A program made the translations under genes and the position numbers. From positions 36,394,001 to 36,458,000 of the forward strand of contig OY540810.1 of NCBI GenBank assembly GCA_961205875.1: a stretch of DNA of 64,000 nucleotides, written 5' to 3'. Positions 5,871 through 30,429 of the stretch are shown here, in pieces. Under the pieces are notes generated by a model that saw nothing but the letters and a program-made list of their open reading frames with translations, did not search any database and was not told the origin of the DNA. Each line of letters opens with the position of its first letter. The first letter of the stretch is position 1. The DNA is from Sialis fuliginosa. Lineage: Eukaryota; Arthropoda; Insecta; Megaloptera; Sialidae.

Positions 5871-8822
5871 ATGATACAAAATAAATTAATTTTGACTTTT
5901 AGAACTGTTTCAAAGCGAAATATAACTAATGATATAATATTATACAAAAACAATCATTTAAAAAATGGTATGTGCATTAAAATTACAATAAGTTTTTGTA
6001 TTTTGTCTTCTAAATCAAAATAAAATTTTAGTTAATTCATCATCCAAATCCAGGAAGAATAATCTTGCTAATATAATAACAATAAAAAAGAGAGAGCAGT
6101 TTGATTTCATTAAAACTATTACAAAGAATGCAAATGATATAAGAACTTTGAATTGGGACAATATTAGACAAGATATATTAAAAAATAATTATAATACAAC
6201 TGAAACTAATCTTGATGCTACAGTTATAACTGGCTGCATGCAGAACGAACAATTAGATCTAGCTCTATCTTATGTATCTTATTTAAATGAAAAAAATGTT
6301 AACATTAATGTTGCAACAATAGGAAAACTTTTAAAATTATTTTATTTTACATATAAAGGCCAGAATATAAATAATGAAACGGAAGAAAAAATACTGCATT
6401 TGTAAGTAATAGTAACATTTATATTCAGTGGTGTAGCTACTTTGAAGCAATTGGAATAGAATGCTCCAAGTGCGTGATCACAAATTAATTAAAAACAAAA
6501 TAAAAATTTTTCAAAAAGAAGGGTGAGGCAAGAGAGCAACAACAAATTAAAATCACACATATTTGAGTTGGAACAACTAGCGGTGTACTAATTGAAAAAC
6601 TCTGGTAAGAGTGAAATCACCCTTTCATAATAGTTTTGTTGGATTTTAATTATACTTTTTTTGACTAATTCCACTTCTTTTTTTAAATTTTTCCTATGTG
6701 TTTAGAGTTGGACACATTTAATTTATCTTGCTCTAGAGTACTGAATACGTAGCCACACCACTGTTTTTATTTATTAATAAATGAAATATAATCTATTGCG
6801 ATGACATTAAGAACACATAATTTATTTTTATAGTGCAGATATTTTATCAAAAAAAACATCTATACTAGATGCAAATACAGCAGAAAATTTAATTCACGCA
6901 TTATCGTTAACAACAAAATGGAATGATTGTTTAAAATTAATTAATGAAATTAAAATAACATCAACTCCTAGTGCAAGTACTTATAGCGCTGTTACTGTAG
7001 CAGCTTTTGTAAACAAGAATGAAGAGCTTGGATGGAATATCTTAACTGAAATGAATAGTATGCCTTTATTTTAAATATATTATATTGTCCTTATCCAGTA
7101 TTCTCTAATCTATCATTCATTTTATTACTTTTATACAAACATTAATAAAATGTAATGTTACGTGATTTATTATATTACTACAACTCAAATATTTTATTTA
7201 TTTAAAAAACTGCAATAGTGTTATATATTTAATTACGATAGTTTCTTCTGCACGGTTCCACATTCTGTTGTAGTACTTAATAATAAAATCTTCTTATAGT
7301 ATGTTTATTAAATACAAGGATAAATATAGAAGCTATTTATTACTTACCTTTTAGCTAATAATAGGCCACCGTTACCATCAGTTTTTATAGAATGGATTAA
7401 CGTTTCCGAGAAGAATAAAAAAACATATTATAAAGACATTGAAAAAATGTTGAATTATCACAAACAAAATTATAATGTTATCGAGAAAACTGTTGCTGAA
7501 AAACTTTCACAGTCATGTAAAAAAAATGATGTATTATGTATGGAAACAAAAATTACAAAAAGGTATTGGTAAAATTAGAAATACTTAAATTTAACCTTAG
7601 CTCCACACATGTTCATGAATATTCAAGTTCATATAAGTTTTCTTTTCTCTCCACTTTATGATAAAATATCTTCTGTGATAACATTAGTTAATTTTGATAT
7701 ACGATGATTTACTAATTATTATTCACGTTTGTATTTTCATCTTTACTTAATTGCGTGTTTGTAAATTAATGATACAATAATTTATCTACGATATCAAACG
7801 TATGGAGTTGAGGCAAATTGATATATTTTAATATCTGGTTAATTTGGAATTTATTTTGATTATATGCATTATAATATTTTGTTAATTTTTAGAGGATTAT
7901 GTACACATTGTTCGGAAACATTGCAAGCTCCCAAGTTAAATAAAGATGAATTCAGTATATTAAAAGAACGATTTTATAAAAATGTAATGCTAGGTAAAAA
8001 TTTATTTACAAAAACAACTCCGGAAGAACTAACGAAATTTTCAATCTTTATTGAAAACAATAATACTTGCGACATTGTACTGGATGGATTAAATATTGCT
8101 TATTCAGCTGGCGTCCAAAAATCGCCACTGATATATGCAAAATTAGTAAGTATAATTTTATTTTAATGCCAAGTTTTTGTTAATCCATGATTATATTTTA
8201 TTTTAGCTGGCGTCTGTAGTAGATCATTTTATTCAAAGATCTCAGCGTGTTATGGTTCTAGGAAGAACGCACATGAGAAAATGGCCAAAGTCACATATGG
8301 ATTACATCTATAATAATGCATCTGTTTTTCTAACACAAAATTTGTAAGCCTTTATTGTTATTATGAAAATGTCCCTTTAAGAGAATGAGAAAATAATTTA
8401 TTTTGGTGAACCACTGCTGAATTATTTGTTTATCTCTTGTAGATCACAAGATGACCCTTTTCTTCTGTATGCCACTATGCTAAATGGTCCAAATACAGGT
8501 TTCATCAGTAGAGATTTAATGCGAGGTCATGCTTTCCGATTGGGGGATACAGAACTTACAAACATATTTAAACGATGGCAACATCAAAATCAACATCAAC
8601 TGATATACGTTGAGAATAATGGCACTGTTCATCTTAAAGTAAGATTGTTAAATCTTGTTTAATATTTTTATTATATTATTTTTTTTTTAGTATCCTTTAA
8701 AAATTACCCCTGCGGTACAAAAGAATGAAAATCATTGGCACATTCCAATTGAAGATAATGTAGCAAATAAAATAGTTTCATTTGATGTACCTAAAAACTG
8801 GTTGTGCTTAAAATTTGTATGA
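5871..8822 (+). CDS. PRORP: Mitochondrial RNase P catalytic subunit (PRORP/MRPP3)
   Basis: Eight exons splice in frame to 538 aa: 5871-5967, 6032-6401, 6834-7057, 7355-7562, 7893-8145, 8207-8343, 8443-8638, 8691-8822. The enzyme cuts 5' leaders from mitochondrial tRNA precursors as part of the protein-only RNase P complex. The N-terminus (MIQNKLILTFRTVSKRN) is basic and acid-free, as in a matrix-targeting peptide. A helical PPR-like region spans roughly 60-290. The central zinc site shows CTHC (303-306), with His512 and Cys534 near the C-terminus as likely remaining ligands. The NYN nuclease domain keeps all four expected aspartates: Asp364 in VLDGLN, Asp433-Asp434 in QDDPFLLY, and Asp454 in SRDLMR. 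Length matches animal homologs. It should be catalytically intact. An AATAAA lies at 8841, just after the stop. Fly homolog: mulder. Confidence 0.95.
6426..6763. mobile_element. hAT-type MITE in PRORP intron 2
   Basis: 338-bp element with termini CAGTGGTGTAGCTAC and GTAGCCACACCACTG (one mismatch between inverted repeats). Flanks are tttatatt and tttttatt, 7/8 identical, as expected for an ageing 8-bp hAT duplication. It begins 25 bp after the 5' splice site of intron 2 and ends 70 bp before the next exon, so most of that intron is transposon. No transposase frame. Confidence 0.75.
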
Positions 8823-18989: not shown

Positions 18990-19600
18990 ACGAATTGAAT
19001 AACTAAGGATCATTCATCTTTAGACAAAGAACATCTAAATTCACCAAAGGTAGTTAATTATTGAACAATTTAAATAAAAACCGATAAAGTGTTCAGATAA
19101 ATTGCCTGGAGTTGGTTAACCATTTAATTTTTATACAATTTTACTAAAAAATATTAGTTTGAAATTTTTCTGAAGACACACCTGATTTTTTTCGTATATT
19201 TTTAATTTTTTTGACAATTAACATTTAAAACGTGAAAATGATACCTATTTAATATGTCAAAGTAAATCAAAATATTTTACAACAAACGTTGTAAACCTAC
19301 ATTATAGGAAATTGAATGCTCTACAAAAAAGATTCTATAAACTTTTCACGTAACATGTGTTGTTCTTAAGATATCTTGACAAAATAAATATTTTGGGGCG
19401 TCACCCCTCCCCCTTACACACGATTTCGATGATTCGAAATGGGATCGTCCTCAAGCTAGACCCAACCATTCATCCAAGTTTCATTATTATCGGTTCAGTG
19501 GTTCATGAGTTATGCGTGTGACAAGGATTCACTCGACAGACCACAGACAGACAGACAGACACGGAACGAAAAGTGTTTGTCTTGACCTGGGTGATTGGAA
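18990..19600 (+). repeat. Interspersed repeat, copy with the unoccupied hAT site
   Basis: Shares caccaaaggtagttaatta, the cacccctcccccttac block and the gcgtgtgacaaggattcact block with a second copy at 22978-23419 that resumes at 30083. In this copy gattcact (about 19527) occurs once and continues directly into cgacag and a CAGA-rich run. It therefore shows the pre-insertion state of the site where the composite hAT structure sits in the other copy. Confidence 0.8.
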
Positions 19601-20580: not shown

Positions 20581-21190
20581 ATAGTACGTCTGGTTCGTGG
20601 CAAATAAAGCCAAAACGCTGCACTTTTTGATTGGGGTATGCCACTTTCTGTGGTCATATATAAGGTCAAATGAAAGATTTTCAGATAGGGAGCCACTTTA
20701 AAATCCATGTAGAACACTGTTATATCGGCTATTAAAGATGGTCCCCACGGTTTTTATTAAATTGGCTGTATCTCAGCTCCTAATCATCCGATATCAATTT
20801 TATTTTGTTTATTTTAAAGTTCTTATAAAAGAAATCTTTTTTATCATTATTCATTTTTCTCTAAATTTTAAGGGTTCCCCACAATTTTCCGAAATCTGAA
20901 GATTTCACTTTTCTTACAAACTTAATTGTTATATAACTTGTTTATTGTGCCCAATAATTTTTTTTTACTTCATATAAAAAAGAAAGACATTTTTGTCTGC
21001 GTTCCATTGATAACTAGATAATACTGTTTTACTTAACAACTTCTTTGGAAATAGCGTGTTAAACTAAGAAAAATAGATTCTTTTTGGATCATTCCAAGTC
21101 AAGTTTACCTGTTGGTTTCTCGGATTCGAGATTTTGATGGAAATGTTCATTTATACCTTCCCTGAATCAATTCTGACTATTTTTATCATC

Positions 21191-21235
21191 ATGTCTGTCT
21201 GTCTGTCTGTGTGTGTATCTGTTTGTCTGTAAACG
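21191..21235 (+). repeat. TGTC microsatellite
   Basis: Runs of tgtctgtctgtctg with tgtgtgtat. Similar TGTC/GACA runs occur at 19545, 30100, 32885, 47870 and 61935, often at the edge of interspersed repeats. Confidence 0.8.
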
Positions 21236-21550
21236 CTGGAACTCAAAAATGGCAGTACATAGAGGGGTAAAATTTTATATTAAGGATTAATTTGTTTTAA
21301 AAAAGAAAACCAGATGTTTTTAAAACCGGAAACGGATATTTACTCTCGTAATTTTTGTAATTATTCGAAATATTTCTGAAACGGTACGTGTTGGAAGAAA
21401 ATGTTTAAATAATAATTTACTTATAATATTATTATTTATAATTTATGTTATGTTCAATTCCTCTCAAAAAAAGTTTTTGAGGTTATAATCGTTTTTTTCA
21501 ATTATATTCGAAATGGTTTAAAGCAGAAATAAATTATTGAAATAAAAGTT

Positions 21551-22045
21551 GTAGAGTACGTTATTTTCTATAGTTTATGTTCCATTAATTTTTTTGTATC
21601 TTTTACCAATTAAAAAAAAATCTTTTTTATTTAATTTTTTATTTTTTTCAATTTTTTTTTGAACAAGTTCATGACAGAATGAAATGTTTATAACAAAAAA
21701 TGTAGAGAACGTTATTATCTATAGTTTATGTTCTATTAATTTTTTTGTATCTCTTACCAATTAAAAAAAATCCTTTTTATTTAATTTTTTATTTTTTCAA
21801 TTTTTTTGAAGAAGTTCATGACAGAATGAAATGTTTATAACAAAAAATGTAGAGAACGTTATTTTCTATAGTTTATGTTCCATTAATTTTTTTGTATCTC
21901 TTACCAATTAAAAAAAAATCTTTTTTATTTAATTTTTTATTTTTTTCCATTTTTTTTTAACAAGTTCATGACAGAATGAAATGTTTATAACAAAATATGT
22001 AGAGAACGTTATTATCTATACTTTATGTTCTATTAATTTTTTATA
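21551..22045 (+). repeat. Tandem repeat, about 150 bp x 3.3
   Basis: Units begin with gtagagaacgttatt at 21551, 21702, 21849 and 21999 (spacings 151, 147, 150). Each contains tttatgttctattaattt and a caagttcatgacagaatgaa block. The last unit is partial. The array sits in the loop of the foldback element. Confidence 0.9.
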
Positions 22046-22977
22046 TCTGTCATCAGTAAGCCAAAATTATTTGTTTTATATTAGTAGATACACGTACATT
22101 ATTTTATTGTATAAGAAAGTTCAGTGACATCCATGACAGATTTTTCAATTTTTTAGCTATACCATATGAGAAAATTGATCCCAACATAAAATTTCACATG
22201 ATAAAAGGTAAACATGACATGGAATGATCCAAAAATAGTCAATTTTTATTAGTTTAACACACTTTTTCCAAAGAAGTTGTTGATTAAAACAGTATTATCT
22301 TGTTATCAATGGAACGCAGAAAAAAATGTCTTTCTTTTTTGTATGATGTAAAAAAATGATATTGGGCACAATAAAAAAGTTATATAAAAATTAAGTTCGT
22401 AAAAAAAGTAACATTTTCAGATTTTCGAAAATTGTGGGGAACCCTAAAGAATTAGAGAAAAATGAATAATGACAAAAAATAATCTACTCAATAAGAACTT
22501 TAAAACAAACAAAAGAAAATTGAAATCAGATGACTAGGAGCTCAGATACAGTCAATTTAATAAAAACGGTGGGGGCCATCTTTAATAGCCGATATAATGG
22601 TGTTCTACACGGATTTTAAAGTGGCTCCCTATCTGAAAATTATTCTTTTGGCCTTATCTATGAGCACAGAAAGTGTCATACCCCAATCAAAAAGTGCAGG
22701 GTTTTTTTACGTACCAGACGTACTATTAGTTTCGAAGAAGAACTTAATGTCCTTTTGGAAATATGGAATAGTTTTTTTTACAAACTTTGCCCCTTGAAAA
22801 ATTTTCTGCAGTCGTCTCTGTACAGGGAATAGGGGAAAAGTTTTTTGTGAAAATATTCGTTAGATTTTTATTATAGAAATATAAACAATTATTTTCAAAT
22901 TTATAAATACAAAGAAAAAATTTATCTAAAAAAAAAACATCTGCCAACTAAATGCACAGTGCTTCCTCGTGCTATAT

Positions 22978-23419
22978 TCACCAAAGGTAGTTAATTAATT
23001 ATTGAACAATTTTAATAAATACTGATAAAGTATTCTCATGAACTGCTGTTGACAATTTTGACAATTTCAATCTAAATCTAAATAATGACATTTAAAACGT
23101 CAAAATGACATTTAATATGTCAAAGTAAATAGCAATTTAAAAAAACAAATGACGATTTTTTAAAGTAAATTGAGATAAATCTTTGTAAGGGAATATTTTA
23201 CAACAAACGTAGGAAATTGCTCTATAAAATTTTCACGAAACATGTCGTTCTTGAAATATTTTGAAAAAATAAATATTTTGGGATGTCACACCTCCCCCTT
23301 ACCCACGATTTTGATGATTTTGAAATGAGACCGTCCTCATGTCATACCCAACCATCCAACCAAGTTTTGTTAATATCGGTTGAGTAGTTCATGAGATATG
23401 CGTGTGACAAGGATTCACT
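22978..23419 (+). repeat. Interspersed repeat, copy interrupted by the composite element
   Basis: Second copy of the repeat at 18990-19600. It reads through cacctcccccttacccacga and gcgtgtgacaaggattcact and then stops at 23419, where the composite hAT element begins. Its continuation (cgaca...gacagacagac, then cacggaacgaaaagtgtttg) resumes at 30091 after a second gattcact. The repeat was thus split by a 6.66-kb insertion. Confidence 0.85.
23412..23419. other. Outer 8-bp target duplication, left
   Basis: gattcact immediately before hAT element A1; the same 8 bases follow hAT element A2 at 30083-30090. The paralogous empty site holds gattcact once. Confidence 0.85.
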
Positions 23420-24110
23420 CAGGGCCGGCCGAACGGCCAGGCGACCCAGGCGATAGCCTGGGGCGCTAATTTCGTGGGGGCGCCAATTATTTTAAACTTT
23501 TTTTCTATGTTCTGTTCTAGGGCGCCAAATTTAAGCTATATATATTTTTTGAATAATAGTTTTGATTTTTTCTGCAAAATAATTCATTTTACTTAATAGA
23601 ATGCTTAATATCAAAAATAAATTATTTATTAAACATTTTTTTACAAAACTTGAAAAGCACAGTGCCAAATCTGTGGGTGGCTTTGCTAATTCTTGTAACA
23701 ATTCCGGTTAGTGTAGCTAGTGGTGAAAGAAGTTTTAGTAAATTAAAATAATTGATAAAAACTTATTTGCAATCGGCTATGATAGAAGATAGGTTGAATA
23801 ATTTGGCTATTCTTTCAATTGAAAATAAGGTTGTAGCAAACCTCAATTTTGAGACAGCAATCGATAATTTTGCAGATATGAAAGCCAGGAAGAAATCTTT
23901 TATATAATTTTAGTTATATTATATATTATTTATCAATTATATGTTATATTATATTATTATATTACACTAATGAATTAATAACAAGATAATTTTCTCACGC
24001 TTTTTTTTTTGTGCGGATAATTTTTAATGATCGTCACTGTGGCGGTGGAAAGGGGGGGGGCGTCAAAAAAAATCTCGCCTGGGGCGCCAGAATCGCAAAG
24101 GCCGGCTCTG
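23420..24110 (+). mobile_element. hAT-derived element A1 (left border of the composite)
   Basis: 691 bp. The left end is CAGGGCCGGCC and the right end GGCCGGCTCTG, with subterminal GC-rich matches (gcctggggcgc near both ends). It is nearly identical to A2 at 29389-30082; I see a c/t change in the left GC block, a 4-bp indel near 23540, one a/g change and G-run length differences. It carries the relic of a hAT C-terminal domain. Left flank gattcact, right flank gtaaaaaa: the flanks of this copy do not match each other, which is explained only when both copies are considered together. Confidence 0.9.
23649..23907 (+). pseudogene. hAT transposase C-terminal relic in A1
   Basis: The frame reads VTIPVSVASGERSFSKLK, a stop codon, then LIKTYL, RLNNLAILSIEN and NFADMKARK. 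This is the recognisable dimerisation domain at the end of hAT transposases (as also found in ZMYM1-like proteins). Only this C-terminal part is present and an in-frame TAA interrupts it, so it is non-functional. The same TAA is found in A2, so both copies descend from one already-dead master. Confidence 0.85.
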
Positions 24111-24176
24111 GTAAAAAATATTGTACATTTTTGCTAATAGATACCTCTGAAAACATTGTTCACGAATGTTAACAAG

Positions 24177-24193
24177 ATGCAATTAAGGGTTAA
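24177..24193. repeat. 17-bp inverted repeat at the left edge of the satellite
   Basis: atgcaattaagggttaa here is exactly reverse-complemented at 28424-28440. The last three bases overlap the first satellite unit. Directly upstream, aatgttaac...atgcaatt also occurs as a direct match right of the array near 28570. Confidence 0.85.
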
Positions 24194-27100
24194 GAGCATC
24201 ACGCACTTAAAGACCTTCGCGTGCTACTTCCCTTTTTAAAAACAAGTTAAAACTAAAAAAACAAATAAAAACTCATACGCTAACAAAGAAGTAAATTGAA
24301 TAGTTAATATCTCAGCTTGGCGCGATCGAAGAGACTCCAGTTTTTTTTTTAAAATGTAGCTTACACTATTATCTTTAAGAGCATCACGCACTTAAAGACC
24401 TTCGCGTGCTCCTTCCTTTTTTAAAAACAAGTTAAAACTAAAAAAACAAATTAAAACTCATACGCTAACAAAGAAGTAAATTGAATAGTTAATATCTCAG
24501 CTTGGCGCGATCGAAGAGACTCCAGTTTTTTTTTTAAAATGTAGCTTACACTATTATCTTTAAGAGCATCACGCACTTAAAGACCTTCGCGTGCTCCTTC
24601 CCTTTTTAAAAACAAGTTAAAACTAAAAAAACAAATTAAAACTCATACGCTAACAAAGAAGTAAATTGAATAGTTAATATCTCAGCTTGGCGCGATCGAA
24701 GAGACTCCAGTTTTTTTTTAAAATGTAGCTTACACTATTATCTTTAAGAGCATCATGCACTTAAAGACCTTCGCGTGCTCCTTCCCTTTTTAAAAACAAG
24801 TTAAAACTAAAAAAACAAATTAAAACTCATACGCTAACAAAGAAGTAAATTGAATAGTTAATATCTCAGCTTGGCGCGATCGAAGAGACTCCAGTTTTTT
24901 TTTAAAATGTAGCTTACACTATTATCTTTAAGAGCATCACGCACTTAAAGACCTTCGCGTGCTCCTTCCCTTTATAAAAACAAGTTAAAACTAAAAAAAC
25001 AAATTAAAAATCATACGCTAACAAAGAAGTAAATTGAATAGTTAATATCTCAGCTTGGCGCGATCGAAGAGACTCCAGTTTTTTTTTTAAATGTAGCTTA
25101 CACTATTATCTTTAAGAGCATCACGCACTTAAAGACCTTCGCGTGCTACTTCCCTTTTTAAAAACAAGTTAAAACTAAAAAAACAAATTAAAACTCATAC
25201 GCTAACAAAGAAGTAAATTGAATAGTTAATATCTCAGCTTGGCGCGATCGAAGAGACTCCAGTTTTTTTTTTAAAATGTAGCTTACACTATTATCTTTAA
25301 GAGCATCACGCACTTAAAGACCTTCGCGTGCTCCTTCCCTTTTTAAAAACAAGTTAAAACTAAAAAAACAAATTAAAACTCATACGCTAACAAAGAAGTA
25401 AATTGAATAGTTAATATCTCAGCTTGGCGCGATCGAAGAGACTCCAGTTTTTTTTTAAAATGTAGCTTACACTATTATCTTTAAGAGCATCACGCACTTA
25501 AAGACCTTCGCGTGCTCCTTCCCTTTTTAAAAACAAGTTAAAACTAAAAAAACAAATTAAAACTCATACGCTAACAAAGAAGTAAATTGAATAGTTAATA
25601 TCTCAGCTTGGCGCGATCGAAGAGACTCCAGTTTTTTTTTAAAATGTAGCTTACACTATTATCTTTAAGAGCATCACGCACTTAAAGACCTTCGCGTGCT
25701 CCTTCCCTTTTTAAAAACAAGTTAAAACTAAAAAAACAAATTAAAACTCATACGCTAACAAAGAAGTAAATTGAATAGTTAATATCTCAGCTTGGCGCGA
25801 TCGAAGAGACTCCAGTTTTTTTTTAAAATGTAGCTTACACTATTATCTTTAAGAGCATCACGCACTTAAAGACCTTCGCGTGCTCCTTCCCTTTTTAAAA
25901 ACAAGTTAAAACTAAAAAAACAAATTAAAAATCATACGCTAACAAAGAAGTAAATTGAATAGTTAATATCTCAGCTTGGCGCGATCGAAGAGACTCCAGT
26001 TTTTTTTTTAAATGTAGCTTACACTATTATCTTTAAGAGCATCATGCACTTAAAGACCTTCGCGTGCTCCTTCCCTTTTTAAAAACAAGTTAAAACTAAA
26101 AAAACAAATTAAAACTCATACGCTAACAAAGAAGTAAATTGAATAGTTAATATCTCAGCTTGGCGCAATCGAAGAGACTCCAGTTTTTTTTTAAAATGTA
26201 GCTTACACTATTATCTTTAAGAGCATCACGCACTTAAAGACCTTCGCGTGCTCCTTCCCTTTTTAAAAACAAGTTAAAACTAAAAAAACAAATTAAAACT
26301 CATACGCTAACAAAGAAGTAAATTGAATAGTTAATATCTCAGCTTGGCGCGATCGAAGAGACTCCAGTTTTTTTTTAAAATGTAGCTTACACTATTATCT
26401 TTAAGAGCATCACGCACTTAAAGACCTTCGCGTGCTCCTTCCCTTTTTAAAAACAAGTTAAAACTAAAAAAACAAATTAAAACTCATACGCTAACAAAGA
26501 AGTAAATTGAATAGTTAATATCTCAGCTTGGCGCGATCGAAGAGACTCCAGTTTTTTTTTAAAATGTAGCTTACACTATTATCTTTAAGAGCATCACGCA
26601 CTTAAAGACCTTCGCGTGCTCCTTCCCTTTTTAAAAACAAGTTAAAACTAAAAAAACAAATTAAAAATCATACGCTAACAAAGAAGTAAATTGAATAGTT
26701 AATATCTCAGCTTGGCGCGATCGAAGAGACTCCAGTTTTTTTTTAAAATGTAGCTTACACTATTATCTTTAAGAGCATCACGCACTTAAAGACCTTCGCG
26801 TGCTCCTTTCCTTTTTAAAAACAAGTTAAAACTAAAAAAACAAATTAAAACTCATACGCTAACAAAGAAGTAAATTGAATAGTTAATATCTCAGCTTGGC
26901 GCGATCGATGAGACTCCAGTTTTTTTTAAAATGTAGCTTACACTATTATCTTTAAGAGCATCACGCACTTAAAGACCTTTGCGTGCTCCTTCCCTATTTA
27001 AAAACAAGTTAAAACTAAAAAAACAAATTAAAACTCATACGCTAACAAAGAAGTAAATTGAATAGTTAATATCTCAGCTTGGCGCGATCGAAGAGACTCC

Positions 27101-28427
27101 AGTTTTTTTTTAAAATGTAGCTTACACTATTATCTTTAAGAGCATCACGCACTTAAAGACCTTCGCGTGCTCCTTCCCTTTTTAAAAACAAGTTAAAACT
27201 AAAAAAACAAATTAAAACTCATACGCTAACAAAGAAGTAAATTGAATAGTTAATATCTCAGCTTGGCGCGATCGAAGAGACTCCAGTTTTTTTTTTAAAT
27301 GTAGCTTACACTATTATCTTTAAGAGCATCACGCACTTAAAGACCTTCGCGTGCTCCTTCCCTTTTTAAAAACAAGTTAAAACTAAAAAAACAAATTAAA
27401 AATCATACGCTAACAAAGAAGTAAATTGAATAGTTAATATCTCAGCTTGGCGCGATCGAAGAGACTCCAGTTTTTTTTTTAAATGTAGCTTACACTATTA
27501 TCTTTAAGAGCATCATGCACTTAAAGACCTTCGCGTGCTCCTTCCCTTTTTAAAAAGAAGTTAAAACTAAAAAAACAAATTAAAACTCATACGCTAACAA
27601 AGAAGTAAATTGAATAGTTAATATCTCAGCTTGGCGCGATCGAAGAGACTCCAGTTTTTTTTTAAAATGTAGCTTACACTATTATCTTTAAGAGCATCAC
27701 GCACTTAAAGACCTTCGCGTGCTCCTTCCCTTTTTAAAAACAAGTTAAAACTAAAAAAACAAATTAAAACTCATACGCTAACAAAGAAGTAAATTGAATA
27801 GTTAATATCTCAGCTTGGCGCGATCGAAGAGACTCCAGTTTTTTTTTAAAATGTAGCTTACACTATTATCTTTAAGAGCATCACGCACTTAAAGACCTTC
27901 GCGTGCTCCTTCCCTTTTTAAAAACAAGTTAAAACTAAAAAAACAAATTAAAACTCATACGCTAACAAAGAAGTAAATTGAATAGTTAATATCTCAGCTT
28001 GGCGCGATCGAAGAGACTCCAGTTTTTTTTTAAAATGTAGCTTACGCTATTATCTTTAAGAGCATCACGCACTTAAAGACCTTCGCGTGCTCCTTCCCTT
28101 TTTAAAAACAAGTTAAAACTAAAAAAACAAATTAAAAATCATACGCTAACAAAGAAGTAAATTGAATAGTTAATATCTCAGCTTGGCGCGATCGAAGAGA
28201 CTCCAGTTTTTTTTTAAAATGTAGCTTACACTATTATCTTTAAGAGCATCACGCACTTAAAGACCTTCGCGTGCTCCTTCCCTTTTTAAAAACAAGTTAA
28301 AACTAAAAAAACAAATTAAAACTCATACGCTAACAAAGAAGTAAATTGAATAGTTAATATCTCAGCTTGGCGCGATCGAAGAGACTCCAGTTTTTTTTTT
28401 AAATGTAGCTTACACTATTATCTTTAA
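24191..28427 (+). repeat. 184-bp satellite array, 23 units
   Basis: Twenty-three head-to-tail units, average 184 bp, with very few substitutions between units. Each unit has a GC-richer start (gcatcacgcacttaaagacc, ttcgcgtgctcc), in which gagca...cgc pairs with gcg-tgctc as a small hairpin, a middle AT part, then cagcttggcgcgatcgaaga and gactccag before a T8-T10 run. Variants (catgcac, aaaatcatacg, tgctacttcc, taaatg) mark individual units and reveal a four-unit period in the second half. Start and end are sharp and coincide with the 17-bp inverted repeat. Confidence 0.98.
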
Positions 28428-28440
28428 CCCTTAATTGCAT
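28424..28440. repeat. 17-bp inverted repeat at the right edge of the satellite
   Basis: ttaacccttaattgcat, exact complement of 24177-24193. Together they bracket the array, as terminal inverted repeats would bracket a mobile minisatellite element of about 4.26 kb. Confidence 0.85.
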
Positions 28441-28620
28441 GATTTTTTTTATTTTAACGAAATATTAATTTTTTGAAGCAGAAGTAGGCTAGATTTAAGG
28501 GAAAAATAGTAAAAAAAATCTTTTTTTGAAAATAAAAGTTTATTTCATTTTTTTGACTTTGTAAACAAATGTTAACGTCATGCAATTTTATTATAATTCA
28601 AATGGTTCATAACAGAGGAG

Positions 28621-28740
28621 AAATATCTGCCATGAGTGTCATGGGACTTTCTTATACGTAGTACAGAGATTAAACAGTGTGTGTGTTTGCCATAGGTACC
28701 ATGGGACTTTCTTATACGTAATACTGATAGTGAACAGTGT
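28621..28740 (+). repeat. Tandem duplication, 2 x 60 bp
   Basis: atgggactttcttatacgta occurs at 28641 and 28701, with flanking matches (tgccat upstream, aacagtgt downstream) at the same 60-bp spacing. Two units only. Confidence 0.85.
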
Positions 28741-29380
28741 AGGTGAATCTAAATAATTACATAAAAAATTTCCTTCTGGCTAAATTATAAATGTTGGAAA
28801 AAAATGTATAGGGAATAAATTATAGATAATAACATACTCGACATTTTTTATCTAAAACATTTTTTCTTAATTCAAAAATTTACAAGAGTAAACATCTGAT
28901 TTCAGTTATTACGTTAAAAAAATCACTTGTTATATAATGGAGAGAATAATATTACCTTTTTTTTATTATTAAAATTATATTTTTATAAATTATATAATTA
29001 TTATTAACTATAAACAATGAGGATATGTACATTCGTTAACAAAACTTAGTTTTATTGCTCTTTCGACAAGTGCATGATGTAAACATACGTTAACAAATAA
29101 AAACCATTACATAAATATCAGAACCGAAACGAAAAAATCAAATAAATAATATGAATCACAATGTACATACCTGGTAAACACTATACAAAAAGTTAATTAG
29201 CAAAATCACGCGTATTATAAAAATTAGACGATACTTCTTCAGCGACAATTCGCTCTAATTTAAAAAAACGGTTACTCTGATGAATGTAACAATATATTTT
29301 TTTTAATATGCCATCCGTTCATCATTATTGATAAATTTTCAATTTATTAGAATCTATAGATTGGTTTAATACTTGGATAA
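28741..29380. other. AT-rich right flank of segment X
   Basis: No gene or repeat ends found. Recurrent cgttaacaaa-type words (29034, 29086) echo the gttaacaaga at the left edge of the satellite array. Confidence 0.5.
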
Positions 29381-29388
29381 GTAAAAAA

Positions 29389-30082
29389 CAGGGCCGGCCG
29401 AACGGCCAGGCGACCCAGGCGACAGCCTGGGGCGCTAATTTCGTGGGGGCGCCAATTATTTTAAACTTTTTTTCTATGTTCTGTTCTAGGGCGCCAAATT
29501 TAAGCTATATACATATATTTTTTGAATAATAGTTTTGATTTTTTCTGCAAAATAATTCATTTTACTTAATAAAATGCTTAATATCAAAAATAAATTATTT
29601 ATTAAACATTTTTTTACAAAACTTGAAAAGCACAGTGCCAAATCTGTGGGTGGCTTTGCTAATTCTTGTAACAATTCCGGTTAGTGTAGCTAGTGGTGAA
29701 AGAAGTTTTAGTAAATTAAAATAATTGATAAAAACTTATTTGCAATCGGCTATGATAGAAGATAGGTTGAATAATTTGGCTATTCTTTCAATTGAAAATA
29801 AGGTTGTAGCAAACCTCAATTTTGAGACAGCAATCGATAATTTTGCAGATATGAAAGCCAGGAAGAAATCTTTTATATAATTTTAGTTATATTATATATT
29901 ATTTATCAATTATATGTTATATTATATTATTATATTACACTAATGAATTAATAACAAGATAATTTTCTCACGCTTTTTTTTTTGTGCGGATAATTTTTAA
30001 TGATCGTCACTGTGGCGGTGGAGGGGGGGGGGCGTCAAAAAAAATCTCGCCTGGGGCGCCAGAATCGCAAAGGCCGGCTCTG
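29389..30082 (+). mobile_element. hAT-derived element A2 (right border of the composite)
   Basis: 694 bp, the same element as A1 in the same orientation, with CAGGGCCGGCC and GGCCGGCTCTG ends. Left flank gtaaaaaa (29381-29388), right flank gattcact (30083-30090). Each flank matches the opposite side of A1. Confidence 0.9.
29622..29880 (+). pseudogene. hAT transposase C-terminal relic in A2
   Basis: Same reading as in A1, including the internal TAA after the SFSKLK motif and the closing NFADMKARK block. Non-functional and lacking the catalytic part of a transposase. Confidence 0.85.
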
Positions 30083-30090
30083 GATTCACT
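30083..30090. other. Outer 8-bp target duplication, right
   Basis: gattcact immediately after A2, followed by the continuation of the host repeat (cgaca, then a GACA run and cacggaacgaaaagtgtttg). Confidence 0.85.
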
Positions 30091-30429
30091 CGACAATAAG
30101 ACAGACAGACAGACACGGAACGAAAAGTGTTTGGGTTGACCTGAAACGGAAAGATCAATTTAAAATTTTGAAATCGGAGAACAATTTTTTTTCTCATTTT
30201 AAAACAATCACAAAACTTCTCGTATCTTCGATATGGCGAGGAAGCAATACAGTAGTATCTTTTACATCACGATATCAAGATTAAGATATAATATCGAAAG
30301 TAGGTACATACTAACTTCTTCCAATCTACAAATGAATAGTTCAGAACAATGGGATCGTTTCCAGTATCGTACACTATACATCTTTACCAAGTATGTATTA
30401 TAAAATACTTTCATCTGATATATTCGGTT

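What the first reader, a model, noticed from the sequence alone, without database searches (positions are those of the whole stretch)
23412..30090. Crossed target duplications: hAT - satellite segment - hAT composite
Two near-identical hAT elements in the same orientation flank 5.28 kb. Read directly: gattcact-A1-gtaaaaaa ... gtaaaaaa-A2-gattcact. Neither element has matching flanks of its own, yet the outer pair matches and the inner pair matches, 8/8 each. Two independent insertions cannot give this. It is what a single crossover between a circular DNA (X carrying hAT in gtaaaaaa) and a chromosomal hAT (in gattcact) leaves, or what excision and insertion of a tandem A-X-A unit as one macrotransposon leaves. 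Either route implies that satellite-bearing DNA went through a circular or tandem (A-X) intermediate and was re-integrated using a hAT element.
Basis: partly seen in the sequence, partly recalled or inferred. Interest (0 to 1): 0.88.

Follow-up and report, generated by a model that had tools for sequence, protein, structure and literature searches.

The report
hAT-bounded composite transposon carrying satellite DNA
What looked like one odd insertion is a copy of a mobile unit found at many places in this genome: two short jumping-gene copies that appear to move together and carry a block of satellite DNA between them, as bacterial composite transposons carry their cargo.

Summary
The crossed duplications are real: gattcact-A1-gtaaaaaa ... 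gtaaaaaa-A2-gattcact, 8/8 each. They do not record a one-off crossover here. The host genome (392 Mb) holds many copies of the unit. Of 21 copies examined (20 fetched at 10 kb plus the window), 17 show both outer ends; each has its own 8-bp duplication (16 at 8/8, one 7/8), and all 21 have gtaaaaaa after A1. A pattern for the core's right end joined to satellite matches 178 places; of 46 listed exact ones on three contigs, 43 have a hAT end close upstream. X is a 184-bp satellite array (10 to 43 monomers in 19 copies with complete arrays) between the halves of a TTAA-flanked, piggyBac-like MITE split by the hAT. Two satellite arrays with the unsplit MITE and no hAT exist; one locus holds three hAT copies alternating with core in tandem. 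Shared variants of A1, core and A2 go together, so the unit moves whole, presumably by hAT transposase acting on A1's 5' and A2's 3' ends. Best reading: a proliferated macrotransposon with satellite cargo. Transposase, present activity, host species and founding step remain unknown.

The parts
23412..23419 (+). outer 8-bp target-site duplication, left (GATTCACT)
23420..24110 (+). A1: non-autonomous hAT copy; its 5' end is the outer left end of the composite
   Evidence: hAT dimerisation remnant PF05699, E 2.8e-9
23665..23904 (+). remnant of hAT transposase C-terminal dimerisation region in A1 (one stop inside)
24111..24118 (+). inner GTAAAAAA, right flank of A1 (one half of the earlier hAT duplication in the MITE)
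   Evidence: single unsplit copy in L044-L046
24119..24193 (+). right part of the TTAA-flanked, piggyBac-like MITE (XL), ending AAGGG-TTAA
24177..24189 (-). 13-bp terminal inverted repeat CCCTTAATTGCAT of the MITE, right end
24190..28427 (+). satellite array, 23 monomers of about 184 bp
28428..28440 (+). 13-bp terminal inverted repeat of the MITE, left end, next to TTAA
28424..29380 (+). left part of the piggyBac-like MITE (XR, about 0.96 kb)
29381..29388 (+). inner GTAAAAAA, left flank of A2
29389..30082 (+). A2: second hAT copy, same orientation; its 3' end is the outer right end of the composite
30083..30090 (+). outer 8-bp target-site duplication, right (GATTCACT)
19221..19589 (+). paralogue of the host repeat with a single uninterrupted GATTCACT (empty-site relative)

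Best explanation
The locus is one copy of a proliferated composite DNA transposon (macrotransposon). Inferred history: (1) a piggyBac-like MITE inserted at a TTAA in a 184-bp satellite array; (2) a hAT element inserted in that MITE at GTAAAAAA; (3) unequal exchange within the array (or an array-derived circle) duplicated the stretch, giving hAT - MITE right half - satellite(n) - MITE left half - hAT; [quoted passage not shown] (5) the unit spread to an estimated 100 or more places, while the satellite core changed length by unequal exchange and inner hAT ends decayed in some copies. Shown here: the anatomy, locus-specific outer duplications, co-inheritance of shared variants, arrays with the unsplit MITE, a tandem array, loss of inner ends. 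Inferred: the transposase, the order of steps, the founding exchange and the total number.
For: Outer duplications differ per locus: 16 of 17 two-ended copies 8/8, one 7/8, out of 21 loci examined; another 8/8 (CATATTGG) at L039/L043. Patterns: A-GTAAAAAA-XL 44 places, XR-A 111, MITE-to-satellite 178; 43 of 46 listed exact MITE-satellite junctions on C1-C3 have a hAT end or fragment close by. Co-inheritance: A1-left vs core (XR) variants r 0.65, 0 of 5000 permutations as high, 17 loci; L022 and L025, with different duplications and 25 vs 11 monomers, share A1, XR and A2 variants; over 22 paired of 44 A1 junctions A1 type goes with A2 type, Fisher 9e-5, copies being related and so not independent. 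Unsplit MITE in satellite arrays without hAT at two loci. Products of exchange in arrays: L012, 11-monomer block twice in L022, tandem hAT/core at L041. Empty-site relatives for 3 of 18 copies tested, window, L009, L015, and a weak one (67%) for L028.
Against: Movement is inferred from copies, not seen. An all-site comparison of A1 and A2 distances over 13 loci gave no correlation (r 0.00, p 0.49); only shared variants show the linkage. Some variants cross between A1 and A2 (col 230 T in L021 A2, col 369 T in L026 A2), so exchange between copies occurs. In 3 of 21 loci (L011, L012, L016) no right end was in the stretch fetched. L017 has a 7/8 duplication. The two unsplit-MITE arrays could in principle be precise hAT losses.
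Confidence: 0.92

Rival explanations
1. Single crossover between a circular satellite/MITE/hAT molecule and a resident chromosomal hAT at this very locus.
For: Gives exactly this arrangement of duplications; X closes into a ring in satellite register with 23 whole monomers.
Against: The same unit is at many loci with matching outer duplications. It would need a separate event and a near-identical resident hAT at each. A1-left variants, which this model takes from the resident hAT, track core variants. The 3 interior single hAT copies that I could fetch are 80-94% identical to A over their main pieces; but 22 of 58 exact hAT ends in the outer fifths of C1 and C2 have no listed partner and were not examined, so young solo copies are not excluded.
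Confidence: 0.03
2. The founding composite, before it spread, arose through an extrachromosomal circle (integration by recombination at a hAT, or a cointegrate-like transposition) rather than by unequal exchange in the array.
For: Structure is formally the same; satellite arrays are known sources of circles (recalled; one search is a listing), and passages on maize alternative transposition describe circles.
Against: No circle or circle-specific junction was looked for or seen; products of in-array duplication of embedded elements are seen at L012 and L041, so no circle is needed.
Confidence: 0.25
3. An LTR-retrotransposon-like or other long-direct-repeat element whose terminal repeats merely resemble hAT.
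For: Direct repeats of about 690 bp, an interior of several kb and outer duplications mimic an LTR element.
Against: Repeat ends are CAGGG...CTCTG, not TG...CA; duplications are 8 bp; the repeat holds a hAT domain remnant; solo relatives with 8-bp duplications exist; the interior begins and ends with the same GTAAAAAA; mean within-locus A1-A2 divergence (0.91%, 13 loci) equals that between loci (0.96%), whereas LTRs are identical at insertion.
Confidence: 0.01
4. Assembly artefact from a repeat-graph tangle of hAT and satellite.
For: Repeats of this kind can be mis-joined; no reads were available here.
Against: Distinct matching 8-bp duplications at 17 loci plus L039, locus-specific monomer patterns and empty-site relatives are not what mis-joins give.
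Confidence: 0.02

Closest known systems
Maize Ac/Ds macrotransposons and Composite Insertions (PMC4270019, PMC9910405, PMC3260210; passages seen)
   Same: Two hAT ends from separate copies mobilise the DNA between them, with 8-bp duplications; large passengers tolerated; passages report excision, reinsertion, increase in number and presence in several maize lines.
   Different: The passages seen describe individual alleles; none reports a family of this size. Here one fixed composite is at many loci, carries a satellite array, and both inner flanks come from one earlier hAT insertion.
Bacterial composite transposons (IS-cargo-IS) (recalled)
   Same: Two element copies flank cargo; outer ends define the mobile unit; inner ends may decay; one flanking copy can be lost alone.
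   Different: hAT ends, flanking copies whose transposase is only a remnant, non-coding satellite cargo.
Satellite-carrying non-autonomous Helentrons of oyster (PMC7492417, passages seen) and Tetris of Drosophila virilis (PMC4079207, listing only)
   Same: A DNA transposon spreads tandem-repeat arrays through the genome.
   Different: In the oyster passages the repeats are the centre of one element without target duplication; here the array lies between two whole hAT copies with 8-bp duplications.
Circular-intermediate reintegration of satellite DNA (recalled; review listings)
   Same: Would explain permuted order and dispersed short arrays.
   Different: Not required here; dispersal is explained by transposition with outer duplications.

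Membership tests
hAT superfamily (for A1 and A2) | 8-bp target-site duplication | tested here: met
   16 of 17 two-ended composites at 8/8, one 7/8; solo relatives L050, L051 8/8, L049 7/8
hAT superfamily (for A1 and A2) | short terminal inverted repeats | tested here: met
   CAGGGCCGGCC and, from the 3' end, CAGAGCCGGCC, 10 of 11 matching
hAT superfamily (for A1 and A2) | hAT transposase domain | tested here: met
   remnant only: PF05699, 37.1 bits, cut-off 21.4; no intact transposase in A
Macrotransposon / composite transposon | outer ends of two element copies used together, one duplication around the whole unit | tested here: met
Macrotransposon / composite transposon | parts inherited together in new insertions | tested here: met
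   contrary all-site result
Macrotransposon / composite transposon | mobilised by an identified transposase | not testable with these tools
   no assay; one search lists hAT open frames but their ends were not compared
piggyBac superfamily (for the split MITE) | TTAA duplication and CCC...GGG ends with short inverted repeats | tested here: met
   TTAA at both satellite junctions, 13-bp perfect inverted repeat CCCTTAATTGCAT; satellite monomers carry the same TTAA uninterrupted; the CCC/TTAA rule is recalled
piggyBac superfamily (for the split MITE) | piggyBac transposase relation | not tested
   element is about 1.04 kb; no transposase search was made
LTR retrotransposon | TG...CA repeat ends, 4-6 bp duplication, primer-binding site | tested here: not met
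   CAGGG...CTCTG ends and 8-bp duplications; primer site judged by eye only
Integrated circle (eccDNA) at this locus | outer halves of A1/A2 derive from an unrelated resident hAT | tested here: not met
   A1-left variants track core variants over 17 loci; a family-wide test, not one of the window copy alone

The most novel reading that the evidence does not exclude
A bacterial-style composite transposon has evolved in what looks like an insect: a hAT composite has become a main young form of its hAT lineage, is turning into a single element (inner ends lost in some copies), and is a vehicle that scattered a satellite over at least 14 of 20 contigs, with stages before and during its birth still readable in the same genome.
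Probability: 0.58. Interest if true: 0.78.

Novelty: new variant of a known kind. Interest (0 to 1): 0.63.

Why it matters
How satellite arrays get into the rest of the genome is a long-standing question, often answered with circles or with repeats inside one element (recalled). Here the array, two whole hAT copies and outer duplications point to transposition of flanked satellite. It also shows macrotransposition, which I met only as maize cases, as a family-level way of life. Such units mimic LTR elements (long direct repeats plus duplications) and may be misannotated in other genomes.

Tried and rejected
Circle crossover at this locus, LTR-like element, assembly artefact: rejected as above. 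Species identification by a protein search with a window frame gave nothing. Pattern scans of viral contigs for the hAT end and the satellite gave 0; other collections were not scanned. Rfam on 23400-30100: 0. An all-site A1/A2 distance test gave no signal. Literature: 10 searches (one search returned none). 'Macrotransposon' is in 7 papers of the held library; I saw passages of four and the listing of three, and none of what I saw describes an animal family. That is no proof of absence in print. The total number of composites was not counted: a pattern for the A-XL junction shortened by 8 bp was asked repeatedly and never answered. The XR-A pattern holds only 10 bases of core, so its 111 matches include some that are not core (2 of 100 listed look so); 29 of the 100 listed adjoin one of the 40 cores scored.

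Full report
Observation. The window shows gattcact-A1-gtaaaaaa ... gtaaaaaa-A2-gattcact exactly as reported. A1 and A2 are 691 and 694 bp, 98.8% identical, same orientation. They look like hAT elements: imperfect inverted ends (CAGGGCCGGCC / CAGAGCCGGCC, 10 of 11) and a remnant of the hAT dimerisation domain (PF05699, E 2.8e-9). A paralogous host repeat in the same window holds GATTCACT once without insertion.

What X is. X has 23 monomers of a 184-bp satellite. Taken in circular order, its two non-satellite ends join at GTAAAAAA into a 1.04-kb element framed TTAA-CCCTTAATTGCAT ... ATGCAATTAAGGG-TTAA. By its ends that is a piggyBac-like MITE, at a TTAA present in the monomers. The hAT had landed in this MITE, so the inner GTAAAAAA pair is one earlier hAT duplication seen from both sides.

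Prediction and test. This predicts an unsplit MITE inside satellite without hAT. A genome scan for the unsplit site (up to 3 mismatches) found three places, all exact. Two (L044, L045) are MITEs inside short satellite arrays, 99% identical to the window halves apart from some 20 gap columns (98% to each other), with no hAT found within or at the edges of either array. The third (L046) is a truncated MITE end outside satellite, next to TTAA.

The unit is mobile. The window lies in a 392-Mb, 20-contig genome. A query of A1 plus 90 bp of X gave 40 scored matches (of 767 candidates, the window among them), each spanning A1 and the start of X. With the window that makes 21 loci. All 21 have A1-GTAAAAAA-XL-satellite at the left. 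In 17 the second outer end was found: the outer duplication is 8/8 in 16 and 7/8 in one (L017), each locus with its own. Of the other four, L009 lacks A2, its right duplication abutting the inner flank with one base missing, as if A2 had excised alone; L011, L012 and L016 show no right end in the stretch fetched. L039 with L043 adds one more 8/8. Joined flanks of 18 copies were compared with the sequence in hand: uninterrupted relatives of the target were found for the window copy, L009 and L015, and a weak one (67%) for L028.

Numbers. Pattern matches: A-XL 44, XR-A 111, MITE right end to satellite 178, hAT 5' ends 388. On contigs C1-C3, 43 of 46 listed exact MITE-satellite junctions have a hAT 5' end 0.25-2 kb upstream or a hAT fragment within 0.7 kb, 38 at the standard distance; the three without include unsplit L044. 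So probably most of the 178 are in composites, but I did not count composites directly. On C1-C2, 36 of 65 listed exact hAT ends have a same-strand neighbour within 12 kb; the unpaired ones were mostly not examined.

Moves as a unit. Variants found only in A1 recur across loci (col 189 T in 10 of 21 A1 and 0 of 12 A2 with that column; col 194 A in 4 A1; col 700 C in 3 A1). Col 369 T marks the same four A1 but also L026 A2, and col 230 T five A1 but also L021 A2. Cols 42-43 AA are found only in A2 of L022 and L025, both with the 194/700 A1 type. XR col 157 T occurs in exactly L019, L022, L025, the col-700 loci. A1-left against XR: r 0.65, p 0.0002, 17 loci; A1 against A2 on informative sites: r 0.76, p 0.003, 13 loci; A2 against XR: r 0.35, p 0.026. 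On all sites A1 against A2 gave r 0.00, p 0.49; I think private changes swamp the signal. Genome-wide, 22 of 44 A1 junctions could be paired with a listed XR-A junction (100 of 111 listed): A1 type C pairs with AA (4) or A-run (2) A2s, type G with standard (15) or A-run (1); Fisher 9e-5 for standard against the rest, chosen after seeing the table, and 0.002 for AA against the rest. Mean within-locus A1-A2 divergence (0.91%) equals that between loci (0.96%), so A1 and A2 are old partners, unlike LTRs.

Evolution of the unit. Satellite copy number runs from 10 to 33 in 18 loci and is 43 in L016 (the count of 15 for L017 includes one decayed monomer outside, 14). First monomers share marks (37A in 15 and 78A in 16 of 21) rare in the others (2 and 5 of 384), so edges are inherited and the inside turns over. 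L022 has an 11-monomer block twice. L012 has a 1.73-kb long-inverted-repeat insertion twice, 99.94% identical, with six monomers between. L041 has three XR-A units in tandem, the first two continuing into XL and satellite. These are products of the kind of exchange needed to turn satellite-MITE(hAT)-satellite into hAT-X-hAT. A2's 5' end is missing in 5 of the 17 two-ended copies (L015, L019, L024, L026, L028); that their outer ends are present is how they were chosen.

Mechanism and limits. The economical account is hAT transposase pairing A1's 5' end with A2's 3' end, as for maize macrotransposons (PMC9910405, PMC4270019, PMC3260210; passages seen). Not shown: the transposase, present activity, the host's name, and whether the founding duplication used a circle.

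Noticed in passing
window 20581-22726: Inverted arms of about 530 bp (87% identical) around a 150-bp tandem repeat (21550-22042): another foldback-like element with a tandem core.
   Followed up: no
L012 3415-5142 and 6231-7958: A 1.73-kb element with 675-bp inverted repeats inside the satellite, present twice at 99.94% identity with six monomers between.
   Followed up: partly
L038, L039, L040: Three loci share a 568-bp left flank and an A1 that lost its last 8 bp, which suggests a composite inside another dispersed repeat that carried it along.
   Followed up: partly
G000, XR-A junctions; L013, L041, L042: 57 of 100 listed junctions have the inner A-run grown to about ten A, apparently a derived subfamily; 9 of the 57 adjoin a scored core.
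   Followed up: partly
G000 contigs C1-C13: Copies lie near the ends of C1-C2, mostly in the low-coordinate part of C3-C5 and in the upper 60% of C6-C13: insertion or retention bias.
   Followed up: no
L009 1004-6265: A2 missing with one base lost at the joint, as after solo excision of one flanking hAT.
   Followed up: partly
window 7864-8166: Open frame that resembles an exon of mitochondrial RNase P protein (recalled; protein search found no match).
   Followed up: partly
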